Assembly (NCBI RefSeq): GCF_900086655.1
Contig: NZ_LT575476.1
Location: forward strand, 5,356,431 to 5,420,430
Length of the DNA stretch: 64,000 bases
Direction: 5' to 3'
From: Paenibacillus tuaregi
GTDB lineage: Bacteria > Bacillota > Bacilli > Paenibacillales > Paenibacillaceae
Of the stretch, positions 11,452-33,587 are shown one piece after another (within the stretch, counting starts at the first letter, position 1; every line of letters starts with the position of its first letter). Position numbers and translations under genes: made by a program. The notes under the pieces are model-generated. The model made no database searches. It had not been told where the DNA came from and was given only the letters and a program-made list of their open reading frames with translations.

Positions 11452-12159
11452 CTAAGAAGCTGTCTTTACTCTCGACTTTGCAAGGTTCTCCTTATTAAAC
11501 CCCTTCGCAATTAACCAGACTGCCAGACTCATCTCATAAACGCCCACGGGAAGCGCCATCAATCCTTTTACCGTCGAATAGGTTCCGATGACCCCGAACA
11601 TTTGCAGCAATCCAGCTATAAATACCATAACAGCTGTAGCTATTCCGAATATCGCTAACGGTTTAGGCACATAGCCTGTTCGATAAAGCAAATAACTATA
11701 CAGACTAGTATTTATGCCCAGCATGAAATTTGGCCCCAACATAGCTGTCCAGCGGTAAATCGTTTGCAGCAACAGCCCTATAGGCTCAAGATTAGTTTTT
11801 CCCGTTAGGTTAGCCGTTTCATTATACGAACTAAGTTGTAATAAACCCAATATACTTACGACCCCAATCGCAATAAAAACAGCTTCCATAAATCGAAAAC
11901 AAAGATACCCTAACGCAATGTGCTCATTCCAATGCCTTACGTAAGGAAACAGCATGACTGCTGTACCAACAGCCGTCACCACAAGCAAGAGGTCATTTAG
12001 TACACCGATTAAGACCTTTGTTTCCGATCCATTTGCCACAGCTCCCTGCCAATGTTCTGACAAAACGGGCCCATACAAAACTACCGCTATAATTGACGTC
12101 ACTGCAGCAAGGATATAAAAAATCCCCAGTATTCTTGCATTCCTTCGGTCTTGCATCAT
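11452..12159 (-). CDS. DUF4386 family membrane protein
   Basis: A 235-residue protein with six likely membrane segments. The opening RRNARILGIFYILAAVTSII and the middle FRFMEAVFIAIGVVSILGLL are diagnostic of DUF4386. No catalytic motif is seen and the molecular role is unknown. It is divergent from the AraC gene at 12255, with 95 bp between the two starts, so the regulator may control it. It ends at its own terminator. Confidence 0.9.
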   Translation of the reverse strand: MMQDRRNARILGIFYILAAVTSIIAVVLYGPVLSEHWQGAVANGSETKVLIGVLNDLLLVVTAVGTAVMLFPYVRHWNEHIALGYLCFRFMEAVFIAIGVVSILGLLQLSSYNETANLTGKTNLEPIGLLLQTIYRWTAMLGPNFMLGINTSLYSYLLYRTGYVPKPLAIFGIATAVMVFIAGLLQMFGVIGTYSTVKGLMALPVGVYEMSLAVWLIAKGFNKENLAKSRVKTAS

Positions 12160-12254
12160 TTTTTTATTCCTCCCAAGACAATAAGTTTTTTGCTGATGAC
12201 GTATGGTATACTTGGAACAAAATGACCTGTAAACACGTGATACAAGGAGCTATT

Positions 12255-13124
12255 ATGGACCATAACCAAATCATCGAACGTGCCTTGATCCATATCGAGG
12301 ACCATTTACACCAGCCCTTAACGGTAGAATCCGTTGCCGCTTCCTTCAACATGTCTAAATACTATTTTCACCGGCTGTTTTCTGCTATGATGGGCTGTTC
12401 ATTAAACCAATACATCCTTTCCAGAAGATTGAATGCATCCTTAACCTTTATCCAAAACAAAAACAGGTCCCTAACCGATATTGCTTATCAGCTCAACTTC
12501 GGTACCCAAGCCTCATTCACCAGAGCCTTCAAACGCCAATACGGCGTGGCTCCAAGTTCATTAGTAACAGGAATTACATCTATTTCTCCTACCCCCATAC
12601 CTGGAGTAGTGAAAAGACCCATTAAAAATATTAATGGGGATATCGTTACGGATTTCACCCTGACTGAATTCAAAGAGACCCGAATCAGCGGGATCGCCTT
12701 TGAGGTGAATATTGCCGATGATGATTACAAAGAGCAGATTCGCGCACATTCACAAATGCTGTTGAGTCAAATTGATGAAACCATAAGCGGGCCGGGTTAT
12801 GTCATTTATTCCAACTGTCAGCCCGGTTCAACCCGGTTTAAGGTTCTGTTCGGAATCCCAAGCAGCCTTGAAATTGATCAACCTTATTATTTCACGGTTG
12901 ATGTGCCGCAGACTTTTTGTGCCAGGTTCAACTATTATGGTGAACTGCTAGACATTGGTGATGTGTTGAAAAGCGACTATGCCCGATTTTTAAAGATCTC
13001 CAGACAGGAAACGGCAGAAACTGATATTGAACTCATACAAGCTTTTGATGACGTCCACCATCTGGATTCGACCTATCATATCTATGCACCGATCAAAAAG
13101 CTCCCTGCCGATTCTGACTTGTAA
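12255..13124 (+). CDS. AraC family regulator with GyrI-like effector domain
   Basis: The 289-residue protein has two AraC helix-turn-helix units in residues 8-105 (LTVESVAASFNMSKYYFHRL and LTDIAYQLNFGTQASFTRAF) and a C-terminal GyrI-like small-molecule-binding domain (TDFTLTEFKETRISGIAFEV; YFTVDVPQTFCARFNYYGE). ATG 12255 follows AAGGAGC; longer upstream frames would overlap the divergent DUF4386 gene. Similar in plan to the AraC at 21321-22226 but not a close copy. Confidence 0.92.
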   Translation: MDHNQIIERALIHIEDHLHQPLTVESVAASFNMSKYYFHRLFSAMMGCSLNQYILSRRLNASLTFIQNKNRSLTDIAYQLNFGTQASFTRAFKRQYGVAPSSLVTGITSISPTPIPGVVKRPIKNINGDIVTDFTLTEFKETRISGIAFEVNIADDDYKEQIRAHSQMLLSQIDETISGPGYVIYSNCQPGSTRFKVLFGIPSSLEIDQPYYFTVDVPQTFCARFNYYGELLDIGDVLKSDYARFLKISRQETAETDIELIQAFDDVHHLDSTYHIYAPIKKLPADSDL

Positions 13125-26009: not shown

Positions 26010-26732
26010 TTATCGTTTGAAATGCACCTTATAATTAGCTTTATCCGGGCGTGTGTAACTTCTTGAATATTCAATTACAGTGTCTGCCTCATTATAGCTA
26101 GTGTTAGTAAATAACAATAACGGAGCAGAGGAATCAATGTCCAAGAAGCGGGCATCTGATTGATCCAATTGAGTGAGGTCAAGCGTCTGCTGCGAATATG
26201 AAATCTCAATGTTATAAAAATCATAAATCTCATATACAGAGAAAATGGTTAGATCAATATCCCCCAATTGAGGAACAACATGGTGTGGTATATAGATTTC
26301 CTCCAGCGAGTAGGGTTCATTATCAATATAGTCAACCCGTTTAATGTAAAAGATCTGCTCCCCTGGCTGAATGTTAAAAATCTTGCTGTATTTATGTTCT
26401 GCATTTCGCAAGGACTTCGTCAGAATTTGGAAGGAAGGATTCGCATTTTTCTTTCTGACCATTTGCGAGAAACCTTCCAGGGTTTCCAAATCGTGCTCTC
26501 TTTTCTCTCCTAGGACAAATACGCCTTTCCCTTGTATTCTTTTCAGCAAGCCTTCATTAACAAGAGAGGAAATGCCATTTCGAACGGTCAATCGGTTAAT
26601 GCCATAGGTTTTCGCCAGTTCATGCTCGGTGGGGATCGCCGTACCCGGAGGAAATTCACCGTCTTCAATTTTCGTTCGGATAATTTCTCTCAGCTGCAAG
26701 TACATCGGAGATTGATAATCTATATTAGACAA
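26010..26732 (-). CDS. GntR/HutC family regulator with UTRA domain (FrlR-like)
   Basis: The 240-residue protein has the GntR winged helix (LREIIRTKIEDGEFPPGTAI, YGINRLTVRNGISSLVNEGL, KRIQGKGVFV) and a UTRA ligand domain (FNIQPGEQIFYIKRVDYIDN; ARFLDIDSSAPLLLFTNTSY). UTRA proteins sense phosphosugars. It is last of the frl-type cluster, so fructosamine-6-phosphate is the likely ligand. Two direct repeats of GTATAAGCAAT (minus strand) lie 51 bp and farther upstream. Confidence 0.85.
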   Translation of the reverse strand: MSNIDYQSPMYLQLREIIRTKIEDGEFPPGTAIPTEHELAKTYGINRLTVRNGISSLVNEGLLKRIQGKGVFVLGEKREHDLETLEGFSQMVRKKNANPSFQILTKSLRNAEHKYSKIFNIQPGEQIFYIKRVDYIDNEPYSLEEIYIPHHVVPQLGDIDLTIFSVYEIYDFYNIEISYSQQTLDLTQLDQSDARFLDIDSSAPLLLFTNTSYNEADTVIEYSRSYTRPDKANYKVHFKR

Positions 26733-26782
26733 AGACGTTTCTCACTCACTTTCGAATAAATTTCATGATCACGCGCCCCTGC

Positions 26783-26812
26783 ATTGCTTATACTTCCCTT
26801 AATTGCTTATAC
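26783..26812. promoter_or_regulatory. Direct repeats upstream of the FrlR-like gene
   Basis: ATTGCTTATAC at 26783-26793 and again, identical, at 26802-26812 (19-bp period). Possible operator or activator site. Confidence 0.5.
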
Positions 26813-26838
26813 AAATCGGTACAGTTACTGCTGGCCGC

Positions 26839-27564
26839 TTAATGTTTATGTTTAAGTACGGAAGAGAAACGGATTAGGTCTGCTCTTTTGATGGATTTAT
26901 AATATTCAATCGGCTTTTCGCTTTTAGTATATACATGACCGGTAACATAGAAAACAGGGGTCCCGTTCTCAACCTCCAGGAGATCACTTTCCTGCTCACT
27001 CACAAATGTAACACTTAGTGATTCTGTACCGTGGTCAATATCCACGTTATAGACTTCTTCTAAAACTTTATAAAGGGAGTCCTGGGAAAAATCATATTGC
27101 TCAATGCCTTTGCACAATGAATAGTCGATATAAGACAGTTCAATCGTAACCGGGACCCCATCTATTAATCTTAATCGCTGTAGACAGAAAATCTTGCTGC
27201 CAAGTGTTAACTTCATCCTTTTGGATAACTCTTTATTACATTCCATGATGTCCGCATATAACACTTTTGCTGTTAATGTTTTATTGGCTTCCATTGCGCT
27301 TTTCGACAAGGACTGTATATTTTGCAGGTTCTGCACTAGTTTTCCGGGCGAGACAAATGTCCCGGCCCCGCGTTTGCTGTAGAGAACCCCTTCGATAATG
27401 AGCCTCTTGATCGCGCTGCGCAAGGTCGTTCTGCTTGTCCCCAGAACCTCACAAAGCTGCCTTTCGGATGGAAGCTTATCATTGGGGCGCAATTCATTTT
27501 GATCGATAAAATACTCTATTTTCTCCACCACTTCTTCGCGTGGTTTTAAATAACTGTTGTCCAT
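26839..27564 (-). CDS. Second GntR family regulator with UTRA domain
   Basis: A 241-residue protein with a GntR winged helix (LRPNDKLPSERQLCEVLGTS, RTTLRSAIKRLIIEGVLYSK, RGAGTFVSPG) and UTRA domain (LGSKIFCLQRLRLIDGVPVT; LEVENGTPVFYVTGHVYTKS). It is about 30% like the first GntR by eye, not a recent duplicate. ATG 27564 is used; GGAGG lies 12 nt upstream. Having two UTRA regulators in one cluster suggests two ligands or sub-operons, perhaps one for the amidohydrolase/YjbQ pair. Confidence 0.88.
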   Translation of the reverse strand: MDNSYLKPREEVVEKIEYFIDQNELRPNDKLPSERQLCEVLGTSRTTLRSAIKRLIIEGVLYSKRGAGTFVSPGKLVQNLQNIQSLSKSAMEANKTLTAKVLYADIMECNKELSKRMKLTLGSKIFCLQRLRLIDGVPVTIELSYIDYSLCKGIEQYDFSQDSLYKVLEEVYNVDIDHGTESLSVTFVSEQESDLLEVENGTPVFYVTGHVYTKSEKPIEYYKSIKRADLIRFSSVLKHKH

Positions 27565-27660
27565 AACCGGTGCGTTCCTCCACACTTTTGACCTGCATAA
27601 CTACTTAAAATATATCATAAAGAGTGGAGGCGAATAAAACAGTTCATCCTACCCGGGCCC

Positions 27661-28086
27661 TTATCCCTCTTGTATATAAATCAATATCGTTCGCTCCGAC
27701 GGGCCATCAAATTCACAGAAATATACCTCCTGCGCCCCACCCCGAACCATCCTTCCATCCACAATCGGAAAGTGGCAATGATTGCCTGTCAGCAACGCTT
27801 TGATATGTCCTGTTGGATTGCCGGCTGTAGAACCATAGTCTTTTAACATACGGGCATGGGCATAGGGGTGATCTTCCGGAACCATTCTTTTTAAAAATTC
27901 GTCTATATCACTCTCAAGACATTCTAATGCTTCATTGACGGTAATCCCTGTTGTCGTATGCTTCGTTTGGACTGTGACCACACCACTCTTAATCCCGCTT
28001 TCGGCAACAATCCGCTCAATCTCGTCTGTGATTACAAAATACTGATTGTATTTATCTGTGAGGATCGTGATACTGTCTACATGCAT
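27661..28086 (-). CDS. YjbQ family (UPF0047) enzyme
   Basis: The 141-residue protein shows the YjbQ signature blocks VQTKHTTTGITVNEALECLE, GNPTGHIKALLTGNHCHFPI and GRMVRGGAQEVYFCEFDGPS, holding the conserved His/Glu metal-type residues. E. coli YjbQ has weak thiamine-phosphate synthase activity, but the true role of the family is uncertain. Here it sits 17 bp behind an amidohydrolase within a fructosamine cluster, which points to a role on that pathway's products. Confidence 0.88.
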   Translation of the reverse strand: MHVDSITILTDKYNQYFVITDEIERIVAESGIKSGVVTVQTKHTTTGITVNEALECLESDIDEFLKRMVPEDHPYAHARMLKDYGSTAGNPTGHIKALLTGNHCHFPIVDGRMVRGGAQEVYFCEFDGPSERTILIYIQEG

Positions 28087-28103
28087 GGCTCATATTCCTC
28101 CTT

Positions 28104-28955
28104 TCACAAAGAGCATCCCAGAAATTCCAAGGCATTCTTTCCACGAATCAATTCCACGGTCGATTCCCGGAACCCTAAATGATTTAACGCCTCAGCCATT
28201 CTAATTTGCTCAAAACGCGGATTGTCGCTGCCAAACATGACTTGATGCCTTAAGCTCCGGTCGATCCATGTCGAAGGAATATCTTTCGTAAAAACTTGAG
28301 TATAGAATTCTTTGGCATTATCAAAATATAAAATTGCTGTATCTGCATACACATTTGGATATTTCAACATTAACATAGCTGTCTCCTGCACCCATGGCCA
28401 GCCAAAATGCGCGAGACAAATCCTTAATTTCGGCCTGCTGTCAGCCAGTTCTTCAAACTCAACCGGCCTTGAATATTTCGATAAGGTTCCTGGTTCCCAT
28501 GACAAACCACTATGAAAGATAATCGGCTTATCGTACTTCTCACAAATATCATAAATATCTTTTAGCCTAGGATCAGCAGGATAATATCGCTGCTTGCTTG
28601 GGTTTAATTTCAGCCCAAGGAGTCCCAGCTCGGTGAAAGCCTTCTCCAGTCTCTCGGCAGCGCTCGGGTCGAACGGGTCAACACTGGCAAAACCAAAAAA
28701 TCGATCTGGAGCCTGGTCGACAATGGCTCTAATCTCCTCGTTGGTGACCGTTGCCGCCCCTTCCACAGTTGTATAGTCTTGGGGCAGCAGACATAGCTTA
28801 TCCAAGCCGGCACACTTCATTTGATTAAAAATATGCTGTAATGGCGGGGTCCCATTCTTGTGAATATTCAGCACTCTATGTCTGAATTCCAATCGCTGCT
28901 CATCCCCATTGATCAAACCATAAAAGTCCGGATGAACGTGCATATCGATAAACAT
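28104..28955 (-). CDS. Amidohydrolase family protein (TIM-barrel metal hydrolase)
   Basis: A 283-residue amidohydrolase_2 member. FIDMHVHPDFYG gives the first metal HxH pair, PIIFHSGLSWEP and LAHFGWPW supply the middle histidines, and MFGSDNPR the catalytic Asp. This branch hydrolyses or decarboxylates small carboxylic or amide substrates. GTG at 28964 is an alternative start with closer AGGAAG. It lies 32 bp behind frlC and before the YjbQ gene, an association not in the E. coli or B. subtilis frl operons as I know them. Confidence 0.85.
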   Translation of the reverse strand: MFIDMHVHPDFYGLINGDEQRLEFRHRVLNIHKNGTPPLQHIFNQMKCAGLDKLCLLPQDYTTVEGAATVTNEEIRAIVDQAPDRFFGFASVDPFDPSAAERLEKAFTELGLLGLKLNPSKQRYYPADPRLKDIYDICEKYDKPIIFHSGLSWEPGTLSKYSRPVEFEELADSRPKLRICLAHFGWPWVQETAMLMLKYPNVYADTAILYFDNAKEFYTQVFTKDIPSTWIDRSLRHQVMFGSDNPRFEQIRMAEALNHLGFRESTVELIRGKNALEFLGCSL

Positions 28956-28987
28956 GGTAATCACTCTTTCTTCCTATTTAAATGCAG

Positions 28988-29806
28988 TTAGTCCATTAGT
29001 GATCTTAAATTATTAATGGCCCGGCGGGCAAATAATCTTGGCTCATTGATATAGGCGGTTACTAATTCAATAGTTGCTGTACCATCGTAGCCTCTCTCTT
29101 TGAGCTCCATTAATAATTCCTTCATTGGCAGCACGCCTTCACCAGGAATCATATGAGTATCACTCGTTCCATCACTATCAATGATGTGAAGGTGCTGCAT
29201 CTTATCCTGCAATTTATCGAAATAAGCCATCATGCTTTCATGCTGGACGAATGGCGGCACAATATCACACATGCCCACTAAATGATTGGACTCTACTTGT
29301 CCAAAAACCCTAGCCAAATCATTAGCCGTTGTACAAACGTTGGATTCCATCGGCGTGAGGGCCTCGAGAATAATTTTATGATCGATTTTCTCTGCATAAT
29401 CTGTTAATTCCCTCATGGATTGAATCAATCTTTGCCAAATTTCAGCTTCGGAAGTTAAATAGCCGGCATGGGCGGGAGACATCAACGTATACTCAGCCCC
29501 CATTTCCTTGCCCATCTCCATCGATAACTTCAAATAATCAATAGCGTCTTGTCTCATTTGTTCTGTGCCAATCATAAAATTATAAGGATATGCATTATGC
29601 TCGGGAGTATAGACCCTGACCGGAATCTCATATTGATCAATCAGTTTCTTTACCATTTCAATATCGCCATTCTTCAAGTCAGGCGCAAATGCATGCGGGC
29701 GGCCTCCCCATAATTCAATATAATCGTAACCAAATCTCTTGGCATCTATAAAAGCATGTTCGAGCGGATTGCGTTGGTAACCTGAAGTAAATAACCCAAT
29801 CTTCAT
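28988..29806 (-). CDS. frlC: Fructoselysine 3-epimerase
   Basis: The 272-residue xylose-isomerase-like TIM barrel matches E. coli FrlC along its length by eye: EHAFIDAKRFGYDYIELWGG, RPHAFAPDLK, NAYPYNFMIG, HLHIIDSDGTSDTHMIPGEG and ELVTAYINEPRLFARRAINN. Metal ligands Glu, Asp, His and Glu occur at the expected strands. It converts psicoselysine-type to fructoselysine-type sugars. It overlaps frlD by 4 bp (ATGA at 29803-29806), indicating coupled translation. Confidence 0.93.
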   Translation of the reverse strand: MKIGLFTSGYQRNPLEHAFIDAKRFGYDYIELWGGRPHAFAPDLKNGDIEMVKKLIDQYEIPVRVYTPEHNAYPYNFMIGTEQMRQDAIDYLKLSMEMGKEMGAEYTLMSPAHAGYLTSEAEIWQRLIQSMRELTDYAEKIDHKIILEALTPMESNVCTTANDLARVFGQVESNHLVGMCDIVPPFVQHESMMAYFDKLQDKMQHLHIIDSDGTSDTHMIPGEGVLPMKELLMELKERGYDGTATIELVTAYINEPRLFARRAINNLRSLMD

Positions 29807-30630
29807 GATCTAATCCCCATTTCATTATGAATTGAATTCCGCTTCACCCAAGGCTCAAAAACGGACACCACTTCTGCGGCAATTTCCGCTCCTTTGTCCA
29901 AGGCCTCCGGGATGGATTTACCCTTTAAAACAGCAAATAAGAAACCCGCAATAAAACTGTCTCCAGCTCCCACTGTATTGACGACTCTCGCAGGATACAC
30001 GGTTCCTTCATAAAAACTTTGGCCATCAAATGCCAGACTGCCTTGTTCCCCGAAGGTGGCAACAGCCAATTTCATGCCTCGGTCTGTCTTGTCCTTCAAG
30101 AAATTCTCAATGTAAGCATCCCTCTTGTTCTTGTAAGAGAAAAATCCATAGTCTACATAGGGAAGTGTCTGCTCGACAAGGGGATGATCCAACCGATCGG
30201 CATAATCAAAGCTAATGACTGCCCCCTTGGCCTTCAATTTAGGAAGCGTATCCTCGGCCTTCCCCCATAACGCGGTATGGACTAAATCGTGTTCAGCCGC
30301 AAACCGGATATCTTCCTCATCGAAAACCATCGTCTCAAGGACACCTTCAACATAGTCGCCGTGTACACGGTCAAGGCCATCCATATCCATAAAAGTCACA
30401 GCTGTTGGCCCATCTCCCACCTTTAAGTGACTAATATCGATTCCTTCCTCTTGTAAGGTATGAATCATCCACTCCCCATTTGTATCATTTCCGGTTGTAG
30501 AAATAATGGATGTCGGGATGCCCAGCAATTGCATATTCACTCCTGTATCCACTACGTTTCCGGTTGGATATTTTTTATTAAGGCGCTCATACACATCAAT
30601 ACAATTGTCACCGATAGCAGCAAATTTCAT
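29803..30630 (-). CDS. frlD: Fructoselysine 6-kinase (PfkB family)
   Basis: A 275-residue ribokinase-fold enzyme. It starts AAIGDNCIDVYERLNKKYPT with GN, and has the C-terminal PfkB signature VNTVGAGDSFIAGFLFAVLK with the catalytic Asp. DRVHGDYVEGVLETM is typical of FrlD. It phosphorylates the sugar 6-OH of fructosamines with ATP. ATG 30630 follows GAGGAGGTCC. An intercistronic hairpin (30719-30765) separates it from frlB. Confidence 0.93.
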   Translation of the reverse strand: MKFAAIGDNCIDVYERLNKKYPTGNVVDTGVNMQLLGIPTSIISTTGNDTNGEWMIHTLQEEGIDISHLKVGDGPTAVTFMDMDGLDRVHGDYVEGVLETMVFDEEDIRFAAEHDLVHTALWGKAEDTLPKLKAKGAVISFDYADRLDHPLVEQTLPYVDYGFFSYKNKRDAYIENFLKDKTDRGMKLAVATFGEQGSLAFDGQSFYEGTVYPARVVNTVGAGDSFIAGFLFAVLKGKSIPEALDKGAEIAAEVVSVFEPWVKRNSIHNEMGIRS

Positions 30631-30718
30631 ATTGGACCTCCTCGTTCTCCAGTTCCAGCAGCGACCACCTTAATCGCAGCTCCCCGATAAAACGCTTACA
30701 TACGATTTAAAAAACAGA

Positions 30719-30765
30719 ACACATGAAATCAAAGCTTGGCAGGAAGTCATTTTGATTTCATGTGT
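30719..30765 (-). terminator. Intra-cluster hairpin between frlB and frlD
   Basis: Perfect 15-bp stem ACACATGAAATCAAA / TTTGATTTCATGTGT with a 17-nt loop, followed on the minus strand by TTCTGTTTTTTAAA. It could be a partial terminator or an mRNA 3' protector for frlB. Confidence 0.75.
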
Positions 30766-30779
30766 GTTTATTCTGCATC

Positions 30780-31775
30780 TTAGTATTTCAATTGGCGGTA
30801 ATAGCGTCTGATTTCCATTGGATGGCAGTTGAGTTTCTCAACATAAGCATCAATCCGTGAAGTGATCGCACGTAGAACCAAGTGAGAGATCCGGCCTCTA
30901 AATTCCGGGCTTATTCCTTTTAATTCATAGTCCTTGGTATCAATAATGGTATATCTGGAACAAACTCTTGGTAAGAACTCGGCTACTCTTTCCGATAGCG
31001 GACGCTGTTCATCTTCTCCAATAAATAATGTGACTGCTGTATCCCGGTCAATAACTTCCAATGTTCCGTGGAAAAACTCTGAGGAATGGATCGACTTCGA
31101 ACGAAGCCAGTGCTGTTCTTCCCAATAACACATCGCATAGGAGTAAACCGCTCCCCATTGATTGCCTGCTCCGATGAAATAATGCATGGAATCATCCTTA
31201 TGATCCTGCGCAAACTTCATTCCAAAGGAATCAGCCGCCTTTTCCGCTTCGACTAACGCTATTGCCAAATGTTCATCAAGTTCTTTATAGAATTGTTCAT
31301 ACTGCGGGAAATCACCGTTGTTAAACATGAAGCGGTCGGCAACCATAAAAAATTTGATTTGTTCGTTGGCCGGATATGAAATCAAGTAATCGACGCTTTG
31401 TGCGAGCGGTGTATCTTTTACATCAATGAATCCCAGAATGCGAGCCCCTATTTCTTTCACCTGTGAAACGGCTCTGACCATTTCCTCCGTACTTCCGGTA
31501 ACCGATGATATAATCACTACCGATTTACTCGTTAACTTGCGGTTTCCGGTAGTTAAGTATTCCGCTGCATTCTCAACGTATACTGGCAGTGCGCTCTTTC
31601 CGGTAATGTAAGTCACCGCTTGCATGCTTGATGCGTAGGTTCCTCCAATTCCCAAATAGAAAATATTATCAAAACCTGCCGCATAAATCTCATCTACTAT
31701 CTTCTCAATGCTTCCCCGTAATTGAAGGGCTCCGTTTACACTTTCCACTTGTTTCTCTTCGTTAAATTTTAGCAT
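30780..31775 (-). CDS. frlB: Fructosamine/glucoselysine-6-phosphate deglycase (SIS domain)
   Basis: A 331-residue protein with two SIS sugar-isomerase domains (FYLGIGGTYASSMQAVTYIT and YFIGAGNQWGAVYSYAMCYW) and the VVIISSVTGSTEEMVRAVSQ loop. HSSEFFHGTLEVID carries the Glu-Phe-His-Gly block of FrlB/GlmS-like enzymes, and the end CHPMEIRRYYRQLKY is typical of FrlB. It splits fructosamine 6-phosphate to glucose 6-phosphate and the amino acid. Upstream are a cre-like site and a GGTATTAAA element. Confidence 0.93.
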   Translation of the reverse strand: MLKFNEEKQVESVNGALQLRGSIEKIVDEIYAAGFDNIFYLGIGGTYASSMQAVTYITGKSALPVYVENAAEYLTTGNRKLTSKSVVIISSVTGSTEEMVRAVSQVKEIGARILGFIDVKDTPLAQSVDYLISYPANEQIKFFMVADRFMFNNGDFPQYEQFYKELDEHLAIALVEAEKAADSFGMKFAQDHKDDSMHYFIGAGNQWGAVYSYAMCYWEEQHWLRSKSIHSSEFFHGTLEVIDRDTAVTLFIGEDEQRPLSERVAEFLPRVCSRYTIIDTKDYELKGISPEFRGRISHLVLRAITSRIDAYVEKLNCHPMEIRRYYRQLKY

Positions 31776-31891: not shown

Positions 31892-31987
31892 AATTTATTT
31901 TGTTGATAATCGCATTATAGCACCAGCTTAATTTACCGTCAATTTTATTCTTCAAAAATACCTATTATTTATACGAATTATCAAGTG

Positions 31988-32135: not shown

Positions 32136-33587
<1,452 letters not shown>

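What the first reader, a model, noticed from the sequence alone, without database searches (positions are those of the whole stretch)
26010..31775. Enlarged frl cluster with amidohydrolase, YjbQ and two UTRA regulators
frlB, frlD and frlC are accompanied by an amidohydrolase and a YjbQ-family enzyme that classical frl operons lack. Their position after frlC suggests they act on the fructosamine or amino acid part, for example on a cyclic or amide-linked glycated product. Two GntR/UTRA genes imply two signals. This is the best candidate here for an undescribed pathway variant.
Basis: inference. Interest (0 to 1): 0.7.

Follow-up and report, generated by a model that had tools for sequence, protein, structure and literature searches.

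The report
Extra enzyme trio in glycated-amino-acid operons
Beside the genes that let this bacterium use sugar-damaged amino acids sits a conserved three-gene add-on (a kinase, an amidohydrolase-like protein and a YjbQ protein) that recurs in many Firmicutes and may give the long-unexplained YjbQ family a job.

Summary
One operon on the - strand (SIS deglycase, kinase, frlC, amidohydrolase, yjbQ, two GntR/UTRA genes) fills 26010-31775; frlA just upstream carries one in-frame stop. The neighbourhood is conserved: 40 of 40 close amidohydrolase loci have yjbQ directly downstream and 36 of 40 show the same kinase type. Three points change the reading. (1) The gene read as frlD is not the E. coli FrlD orthologue: it belongs to a separate kinase clade (K1) inherited with the amidohydrolase and YjbQ. 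The FrlD-type kinase K2, present in the nearest relative, is deleted here. (2) K1-amidohydrolase-YjbQ is a portable unit: it sits in fructoselysine-type operons, in fructose-asparagine-type operons (a second copy in this genome), in clusters with no SIS deglycase in view, and once alone. That argues for the sugar side, not the amino acid. (3) The amidohydrolase's metal ligands are not conserved in the family, whereas YjbQ's motifs are; these YjbQs form their own branch with Ala-Gln where 49 of 50 others have Trp-Gln/Glu. Most likely YjbQ is the catalyst and the amidohydrolase its partner. The reaction is unknown. No structure could be predicted.

The parts
32136..33509 (-). frlA-type APC permease gene with one in-frame TAA (33240-33242)
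   Evidence: NF008466 416.7 bits over the 3' ORF alone (cut-off for the whole protein 800); stop read directly; no other stop, omega 0.075 and 0.069 on the two sides; terminator-like site right after it at 32120-32088
31914..31942 (-). promoter-like site (TTGACG-17-TATAAT, TG before the second hexamer) ahead of the seven-gene operon
   Evidence: 11 of 12 consensus matches, the best of 20 sites in the region; the total is no more than in shuffles (mean 21.7)
30780..31775 (-). SIS-domain deglycase (frlB of the finding), closer to solved 2a3n, 8glr and 3eua than to E. coli FrlB
29803..30630 (-). PfkB kinase of the module clade K1 (frlD of the finding)
   Evidence: NF007321 385 bits; clade of 33 rows, support 100/99, without E. 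coli FrlD; signature letters
28988..29806 (-). frlC, fructoselysine 3-epimerase
   Evidence: NF007360 451 bits; 57% identity to E. coli FrlC
28104..28964 (-). amidohydrolase-like protein (PF04909); all five metal-ligand positions present in this copy
27661..28086 (-). YjbQ/UPF0047 protein of the Ala-Gln branch
26839..27585 (-). GntR/UTRA regulator 1
26733..26838 (-). scar of the deleted second kinase (K2): about 20 bases of its 3' end remain
   Evidence: window 26786 and on aligns to L004 12913 and on; K2 of L004 is 12148-12933
26010..26732 (-). GntR/UTRA regulator 2
   Evidence: the closer of the two to E. coli FrlR, 26% identity
25960..26006 (-). terminator-like hairpin closing the operon
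   Evidence: 12 such sites in the region, shuffles 6.9

Best explanation
The window holds one copy of a conserved ketosamine (Amadori-compound) cluster made of two layers. Layer one is the usual pathway: permease, 6-kinase (K2), SIS deglycase, FrlC epimerase. Layer two is a portable three-gene module: kinase K1, amidohydrolase-like protein and an Ala-Gln type YjbQ. Shown: the three genes are inherited together, the module sits in operons with different permeases and SIS proteins, K1 differs from FrlD at fixed positions, YjbQ keeps its motif residues while the amidohydrolase's metal site varies and is partly lost in some lineages. Inferred: K1 phosphorylates a ketosamine form that FrlD-type kinases do not take (a C3 epimer, a pentose-derived or otherwise different ketosamine). 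YjbQ, held with the amidohydrolase protein as its partner, then converts that phosphorylated compound so that amine and sugar phosphate are freed or handed to the SIS deglycase. In this strain K2 is deleted and frlA interrupted; a separate frlA-frlB-frlD-GntR locus elsewhere in the genome could cover those two steps, leaving the retained operon to supply the module.
For: Co-inheritance: yjbQ directly downstream in 40 of 40 loci, K1-type kinase in 36 of 40 (L009, L023 and L042 begin at a contig end; L018 does not), frlC in 35 of 40. AHase-yjbQ spacing is -13 to +18 bases in 53 of 54 loci, the other (L030) being a single ORF. K1 clade of 33 rows, support 100/99, holds 32 of 32 module kinases in the tree plus one of L038, and none of 9 kinases from 8 module-free loci nor E. 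coli FrlD (the unlike kinase of L053/L150 was not in the tree). K1 signature: T for G and D for N in the N-terminal GGNxVN motif (44/45 and 43/45, against G and N in 27/27 FrlD-like kinases; T and D in 0 of all 46 others), N for D before GAGD (45/45; 0 of 46). Module in Dcu-permease operons: L050, L143, L146, L147. No SIS hit in the stretches L144, L145, L148, L149. YjbQ branch 98/54, AQ in 43/44 against WQ/WE in 49/50 others. Metal ligands: all five in 18 of 50 gap-free rows, 14 of these 18 being near-copies; two or more His gone in 9 of 36 thinned rows, a label that needs 5 changes on the tree, 4 forced by starred branches. Omega 0.034-0.132 for the seven genes against L004. Own genome has frlA-frlB-frlD-GntR at C4:5.298 Mb.
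Against: No enzyme activity or structure was tested. At least three of the four His positions are kept in 27 of 36 thinned rows and the window copy has all five ligands, so the amidohydrolase may still be catalytic here; some of the tree changes could be regains. The commonest state is Asn for Asp (25 of 53), so 'loss' may partly be an old different design. In L053 and L150 the pair lies with a tagatose-kinase-like protein, a glycyl radical enzyme and a fructose-6-phosphate aldolase and no SIS gene in view, so it is not strictly tied to Amadori genes. SIS genes may lie elsewhere in the SIS-less genomes (not searched). FrlC with E. coli-type FrlB, FrlA and K2 occurs without the module (L151), so the module is optional. 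The YjbQ branch has weak SH-aLRT support (54). That the operon works in this strain, with frlA interrupted and K2 gone, is not shown.
Confidence: 0.45

Rival explanations
1. One reading: the amidohydrolase is a metal-dependent hydrolase that opens a cyclic or amide-linked glycated amino acid, and YjbQ finishes the amino-acid or fructosamine part.
For: The window copy has the five metal-ligand positions and 25 of 25 scanned members match PF04909. Salmonella's fra locus uses an asparaginase for a glycated amide (PMC4072780, passages).
Against: The Asp position is Asn, Gly, Ala or Ser in 33 of 53 rows. Two or more His are gone in 9 of 36 thinned rows; YjbQ is present in all nine loci and K1 in six of them. 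The module sits with an APC permease, a Dcu permease or amino-acid ABC transporter genes (the last read by eye), so one amino-acid chemistry is unlikely.
Confidence: 0.15
2. Damage control: the trio destroys or recycles toxic by-products of the main pathway, such as stalled or mis-phosphorylated Amadori compounds, and is not itself a feeding route.
For: A phosphorylated Amadori intermediate is held to be toxic in Salmonella fraB mutants (start of the abstracts of PMC4941530 and PMC12755824). The trio is an add-on to otherwise complete pathways.
Against: It brings its own kinase, which would make more phosphorylated compound. It also occurs alone (L149) or with no SIS deglycase in view (L144, L145, L148).
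Confidence: 0.2
3. The copy in this strain is a dying horizontal acquisition with no present function: K2 deleted, frlA interrupted.
For: Both lesions are in the sequence. Of 245 sampled same-family genomes only this one has a window-type amidohydrolase (the other seven with a match have 49-53% identity); the nearest copies are in Bacillaceae records (89 and 90%).
Against: The seven operon genes are open with omega 0.034-0.132, and frlA has no second lesion; the operon has its own promoter-like site and terminator-like hairpin apart from frlA. The frlA stop could be a sequence error.
Confidence: 0.2

Closest known systems
E. coli frlABCDR (fructoselysine/psicoselysine) operon
   Same: APC permease (55% identity), FrlC (57%), a PfkB kinase (39%) and a GntR/UTRA regulator
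   Different: SIS protein only 22% identical; kinase of another clade; adds amidohydrolase, YjbQ and a second regulator
Salmonella fra (fructose-asparagine) locus
   Same: The second module copy of this genome (L050) pairs the trio with a Dcu-family permease, a SIS protein, a FraD-like kinase and a GntR gene; FraA is of the Dcu family (PMC4072780, passages). The names FraB-like and FraD-like rest on this context; no Salmonella sequence was compared
   Different: No asparaginase was recognised by eye among the ORFs of L050 (no family search for one); adds kinase, amidohydrolase, YjbQ and epimerase
Salmonella gfr deglycase GfrF / B. subtilis FrlB
   Same: Best solved matches of the window SIS protein are 8glr and 2a3n (206 bits) and 3eua, a putative fructose-amino-acid-6-phosphate deglycase (133 bits); that 2a3n is GfrF and 3eua is B. 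subtilis FrlB is recalled, not from a call
   Different: gfr imports and phosphorylates through a PTS (PMC12675984, passages); here kinases are used
YjbQ/UPF0047 family
   Same: TIGR00149 over cut-off; 20 invariant columns shared with a housekeeping YjbQ
   Different: Own branch, Ala-Gln for Trp-Gln/Glu, longer stretch before the GHxK motif

Membership tests
E. coli-type frl operon | FrlC 3-epimerase | tested here: met
   NF007360 451 bits, cut-off 305
E. coli-type frl operon | FrlD 6-kinase orthologue | tested here: not met
   HMM NF007321 passes (385 over 247), but it also passes for K2 of L004 (371), and the tree puts the window kinase in a separate clade from E. coli FrlD
E. coli-type frl operon | FrlB deglycase of the E. 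coli type | tested here: not met
   66.7 bits, cut-off 430; 22% identity
E. coli-type frl operon | intact FrlA permease | tested here: not met
   in-frame TAA at 33240-33242
Amadori catabolism in general (kinase plus SIS deglycase) | growth on or cleavage of an Amadori compound | not testable with these tools
   needs an assay
YjbQ (TIGR00149) | HMM match over cut-off | tested here: met
   108.3 over 67.75 bits
YjbQ (TIGR00149) | thiamine-phosphate synthase side activity | not testable with these tools
   only the family name states it
Amidohydrolase PF04909 | HMM match over cut-off | tested here: met
   120.8 over 26.4 bits; 25 of 25 members match
Amidohydrolase PF04909 | conserved metal ligands (HxH, H, H, D; their roles are recalled) | tested here: inconclusive
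   present in the window copy; among relatives only 18 of 50 gap-free rows have all five

The most novel reading that the evidence does not exclude
K1, YjbQ and a pseudo-amidohydrolase partner form a second, SIS-independent way to take phosphorylated ketosamines apart, in which YjbQ breaks or rearranges the CH2-N linkage. This would be a first natural role for the widespread UPF0047/YjbQ family, whose listed thiamine-phosphate synthase side activity (joining a CH2-N bond; reaction recalled) would be an echo of it.
Probability: 0.2. Interest if true: 0.85.

Novelty: new variant of a known kind. Interest (0 to 1): 0.58.

Why it matters
The family model that names 'fructoselysine 6-kinase' accepts both kinase clades, so the add-on is easily hidden in annotated genomes; here a signature separates the clades. 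If the trio handles a class of glycated amino acids that known deglycases leave, it changes which Maillard products gut and soil Firmicutes are thought to remove. It also offers a concrete pathway setting in which to find the function of YjbQ, a family with at least nine solved sequences and no natural reaction that I could find in the sources searched (judged from listings).

Tried and rejected
Rejected: chance grouping; a housekeeping YjbQ that happens to sit here (own branch); a typical frl operon with two unrelated extra genes (kinase tree). Base composition gave nothing: the cluster is 42% G+C, little below its surroundings. The first blastn to L004 printed nothing because of a wrong file path and was redone. 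The two frlA rows were out of frame and are void; one search replaces them. One search ended in an error after its table had printed; its FrlD-like set is 27 of the 46 non-K1 kinases, chosen by locus. One script rule put five K2 kinases in the wrong group; they were moved before the tree, where 16 near-copies of 91 rows were dropped; L038's kinase was counted outside the module group and inside it. In one search rows of 110 aa or less and one duplicate locus (L096) were left out; L036 was left out and added, from which 18 near-copies or partial rows were dropped. Neighbour labels are best tblastn matches to a few query proteins, not family assignments, and many contigs are short.

Literature: no paper holds both YjbQ and amidohydrolase; 24 papers hold YjbQ and 9 hold UPF0047 or the family name, none seeming from title and abstract start to be on its function. 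The one paper holding frlB, fructoselysine, operon and amidohydrolase together (PMC5270733, passages) speaks of other amidohydrolases, in purine breakdown. A search for a glycyl-radical pathway fitting L053 gave 33 papers, 15 listed, none seeming to fit. The Intestinimonas and Faecalibacterium fructoselysine papers (passages) do not hold the word amidohydrolase in their main text. Supplements were not open to me.
Full report
What is there. The seven genes of the finding are real and lie head to tail on the - strand: SIS protein (30780-31775), PfkB kinase (29803-30630), frlC (28988-29806), amidohydrolase (28104-28964), yjbQ (27661-28086), GntR1 (26839-27585), GntR2 (26010-26732). An 11-of-12 promoter-like site ends 139 bases ahead of the first gene, a hairpin with a T-run follows GntR2, and another closes frlA at 32120-32088 (consensus matches only). 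frlA itself (33509 to 32136) has one in-frame TAA at 33240-33242 and no other stop.

Conservation. A scan with the amidohydrolase alone found 41 loci. Forty are close relatives (59-90% identity in the listing), by record title mostly Bacillota, with one Olsenella and one Chloroflexota. In 40 of 40 yjbQ follows directly; a K1-type kinase is seen in 36, frlC in 35, frlA in 32, GntR1 in 32, K2 in 26, GntR2 in 23, an SIS gene in 22; 17 of 40 show all eight parts (many contigs are short). The 41st (L044, 26%) shows no yjbQ, nor do 18 remote amidohydrolases of 26-35% identity. In a sample of 398 genomes of the phylum, 3 have an amidohydrolase of this kind (47% identity or more), each place with yjbQ beside it. 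In the same sample FrlC passes its cut-off in 2 genomes and the kinase family in 3. One of the two FrlC genomes (L151) has E. coli-type FrlB, FrlC, FrlA and K2 with no module, so the module is optional.

The kinase is not FrlD. In relatives two kinases occur: K1 near frlC and the amidohydrolase, K2 between the two regulators. The NCBI family model accepts both. A tree of 75 kinases puts 32 of 32 module kinases and one more (L038) in one clade, support 100/99, apart from K2, E. coli FrlD and 9 kinases from 8 module-free loci. Eight positions separate K1 from FrlD-like kinases, among them T for G and D for N in the N-terminal GGNxVN motif and N for D before GAGD; that these lie at the sugar site is recalled from the PfkB family. 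The window has K1 only; K2 is gone between the regulators, leaving about 20 bases of its end.

A portable module. This genome has a second copy at C4:2.80 Mb (L050): GntR, SIS protein, second kinase, Dcu permease, K1, amidohydrolase, YjbQ, epimerase, small protein. Salmonella FraA is of the Dcu family (PMC4072780, passages). Among 245 same-family genomes 8 carry the amidohydrolase, this one twice. The 8 L050-type loci (L050, L143-L149) all show K1-amidohydrolase-YjbQ; an SIS gene is in the stretch in 4 (L050, L143, L146, L147) and not seen in 4 (L144, L145, L148, L149). L144 has four epimerase-like genes in a row and amino-acid ABC transporter genes (by eye); L149 has the trio alone. A Niallia megaplasmid has SIS protein, amidohydrolase (37%), YjbQ, K1, ABC transporter genes (by eye) and a second kinase, without frlC. 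Two genomes of one genus (L053, L150) pair amidohydrolase and YjbQ with a tagatose-kinase-like protein, a glycyl radical enzyme and a fructose-6-phosphate aldolase. Since permease and SIS protein change while the trio stays, it most likely works on the sugar side (inference).

Which protein is the catalyst. YjbQ of the module forms one side of a branch (98/54) against 50 other YjbQs, and has Ala-Gln in 43 of 44 where 49 of 50 others have Trp-Gln or Trp-Glu; 20 columns are invariant across 25 sequences including a housekeeping one. The amidohydrolase still matches PF04909 in 25 of 25, but Asp247 is Asn, Gly, Ala or Ser in 33 of 53. Two or more His ligands are gone in 9 of 36 thinned rows; the tree needs five changes of that label, four of them forced by well-supported branches, though some could be regains. 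R236 and R250 are invariant in 53 of 53. The window copy keeps all five ligands. The two genes overlap or lie within 18 bases in 53 of 54 loci; in one MAG (L030) they are one ORF, which may be an assembly fault. I read this as YjbQ doing the chemistry with the amidohydrolase as partner (inference).

State of this copy. Against Neobacillus niacini (L004) protein identity is 79-89% and omega 0.034-0.132 for the seven genes, and 0.075 and 0.069 on the two sides of the frlA stop; synonymous sites are near saturation. The stop is therefore recent or a sequence error. A separate frlA-frlB-frlD-GntR locus at C4:5.298 Mb has a kinase that joins E. coli FrlD in the tree (93/86) and could replace the lost functions. 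A window-type amidohydrolase was seen in none of the other 244 family genomes, so horizontal arrival is likely (inference).

Verdict. Real, conserved, and not found described in the papers searched (by listing; passages). It is a variant of Amadori catabolism with an unassigned enzyme trio. The anatomy is firm; the reaction is not known, and no structure could be computed because the queue stayed full.

Noticed in passing
window 33240-33242 (- strand): In-frame TAA in frlA; intact copies exist in relatives. Recent mutation or sequence error.
   Followed up: yes
L053 3625-11347 and L150: YjbQ-amidohydrolase beside a glycyl radical enzyme, a fructose-6-phosphate aldolase and a tagatose-kinase-like protein (in L053 also the activase and a cupin); both have lost three of four His ligands of the amidohydrolase.
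   Followed up: partly
L010, L011, L012, L015, L036 and others: Gut-type clusters go on with an esterase-like (not in L036), a BtpA/SgcQ-like, a Cof-type HAD phosphatase-like and an FGGY-kinase-like gene; an Amidohydro_3-like gene is near in 24 of 40 loci.
   Followed up: partly
L144 10540-13959: Four sugar-epimerase-like genes in tandem after yjbQ, plus a fifth after the ABC transporter genes.
   Followed up: no
L081, L082, L083: The same genome carries three further kinase-SIS loci of the frl/fra kind without the module.
   Followed up: partly
L084 (Enterococcus faecium DO plasmid 2): Partial copy of the cluster with a shortened amidohydrolase gene, without K1 and frlC in the stretch, near IS1216 and resistance genes.
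   Followed up: no
L030 7891-9051: Amidohydrolase and YjbQ read as one ORF in one rumen MAG; may be an assembly fault.
   Followed up: partly
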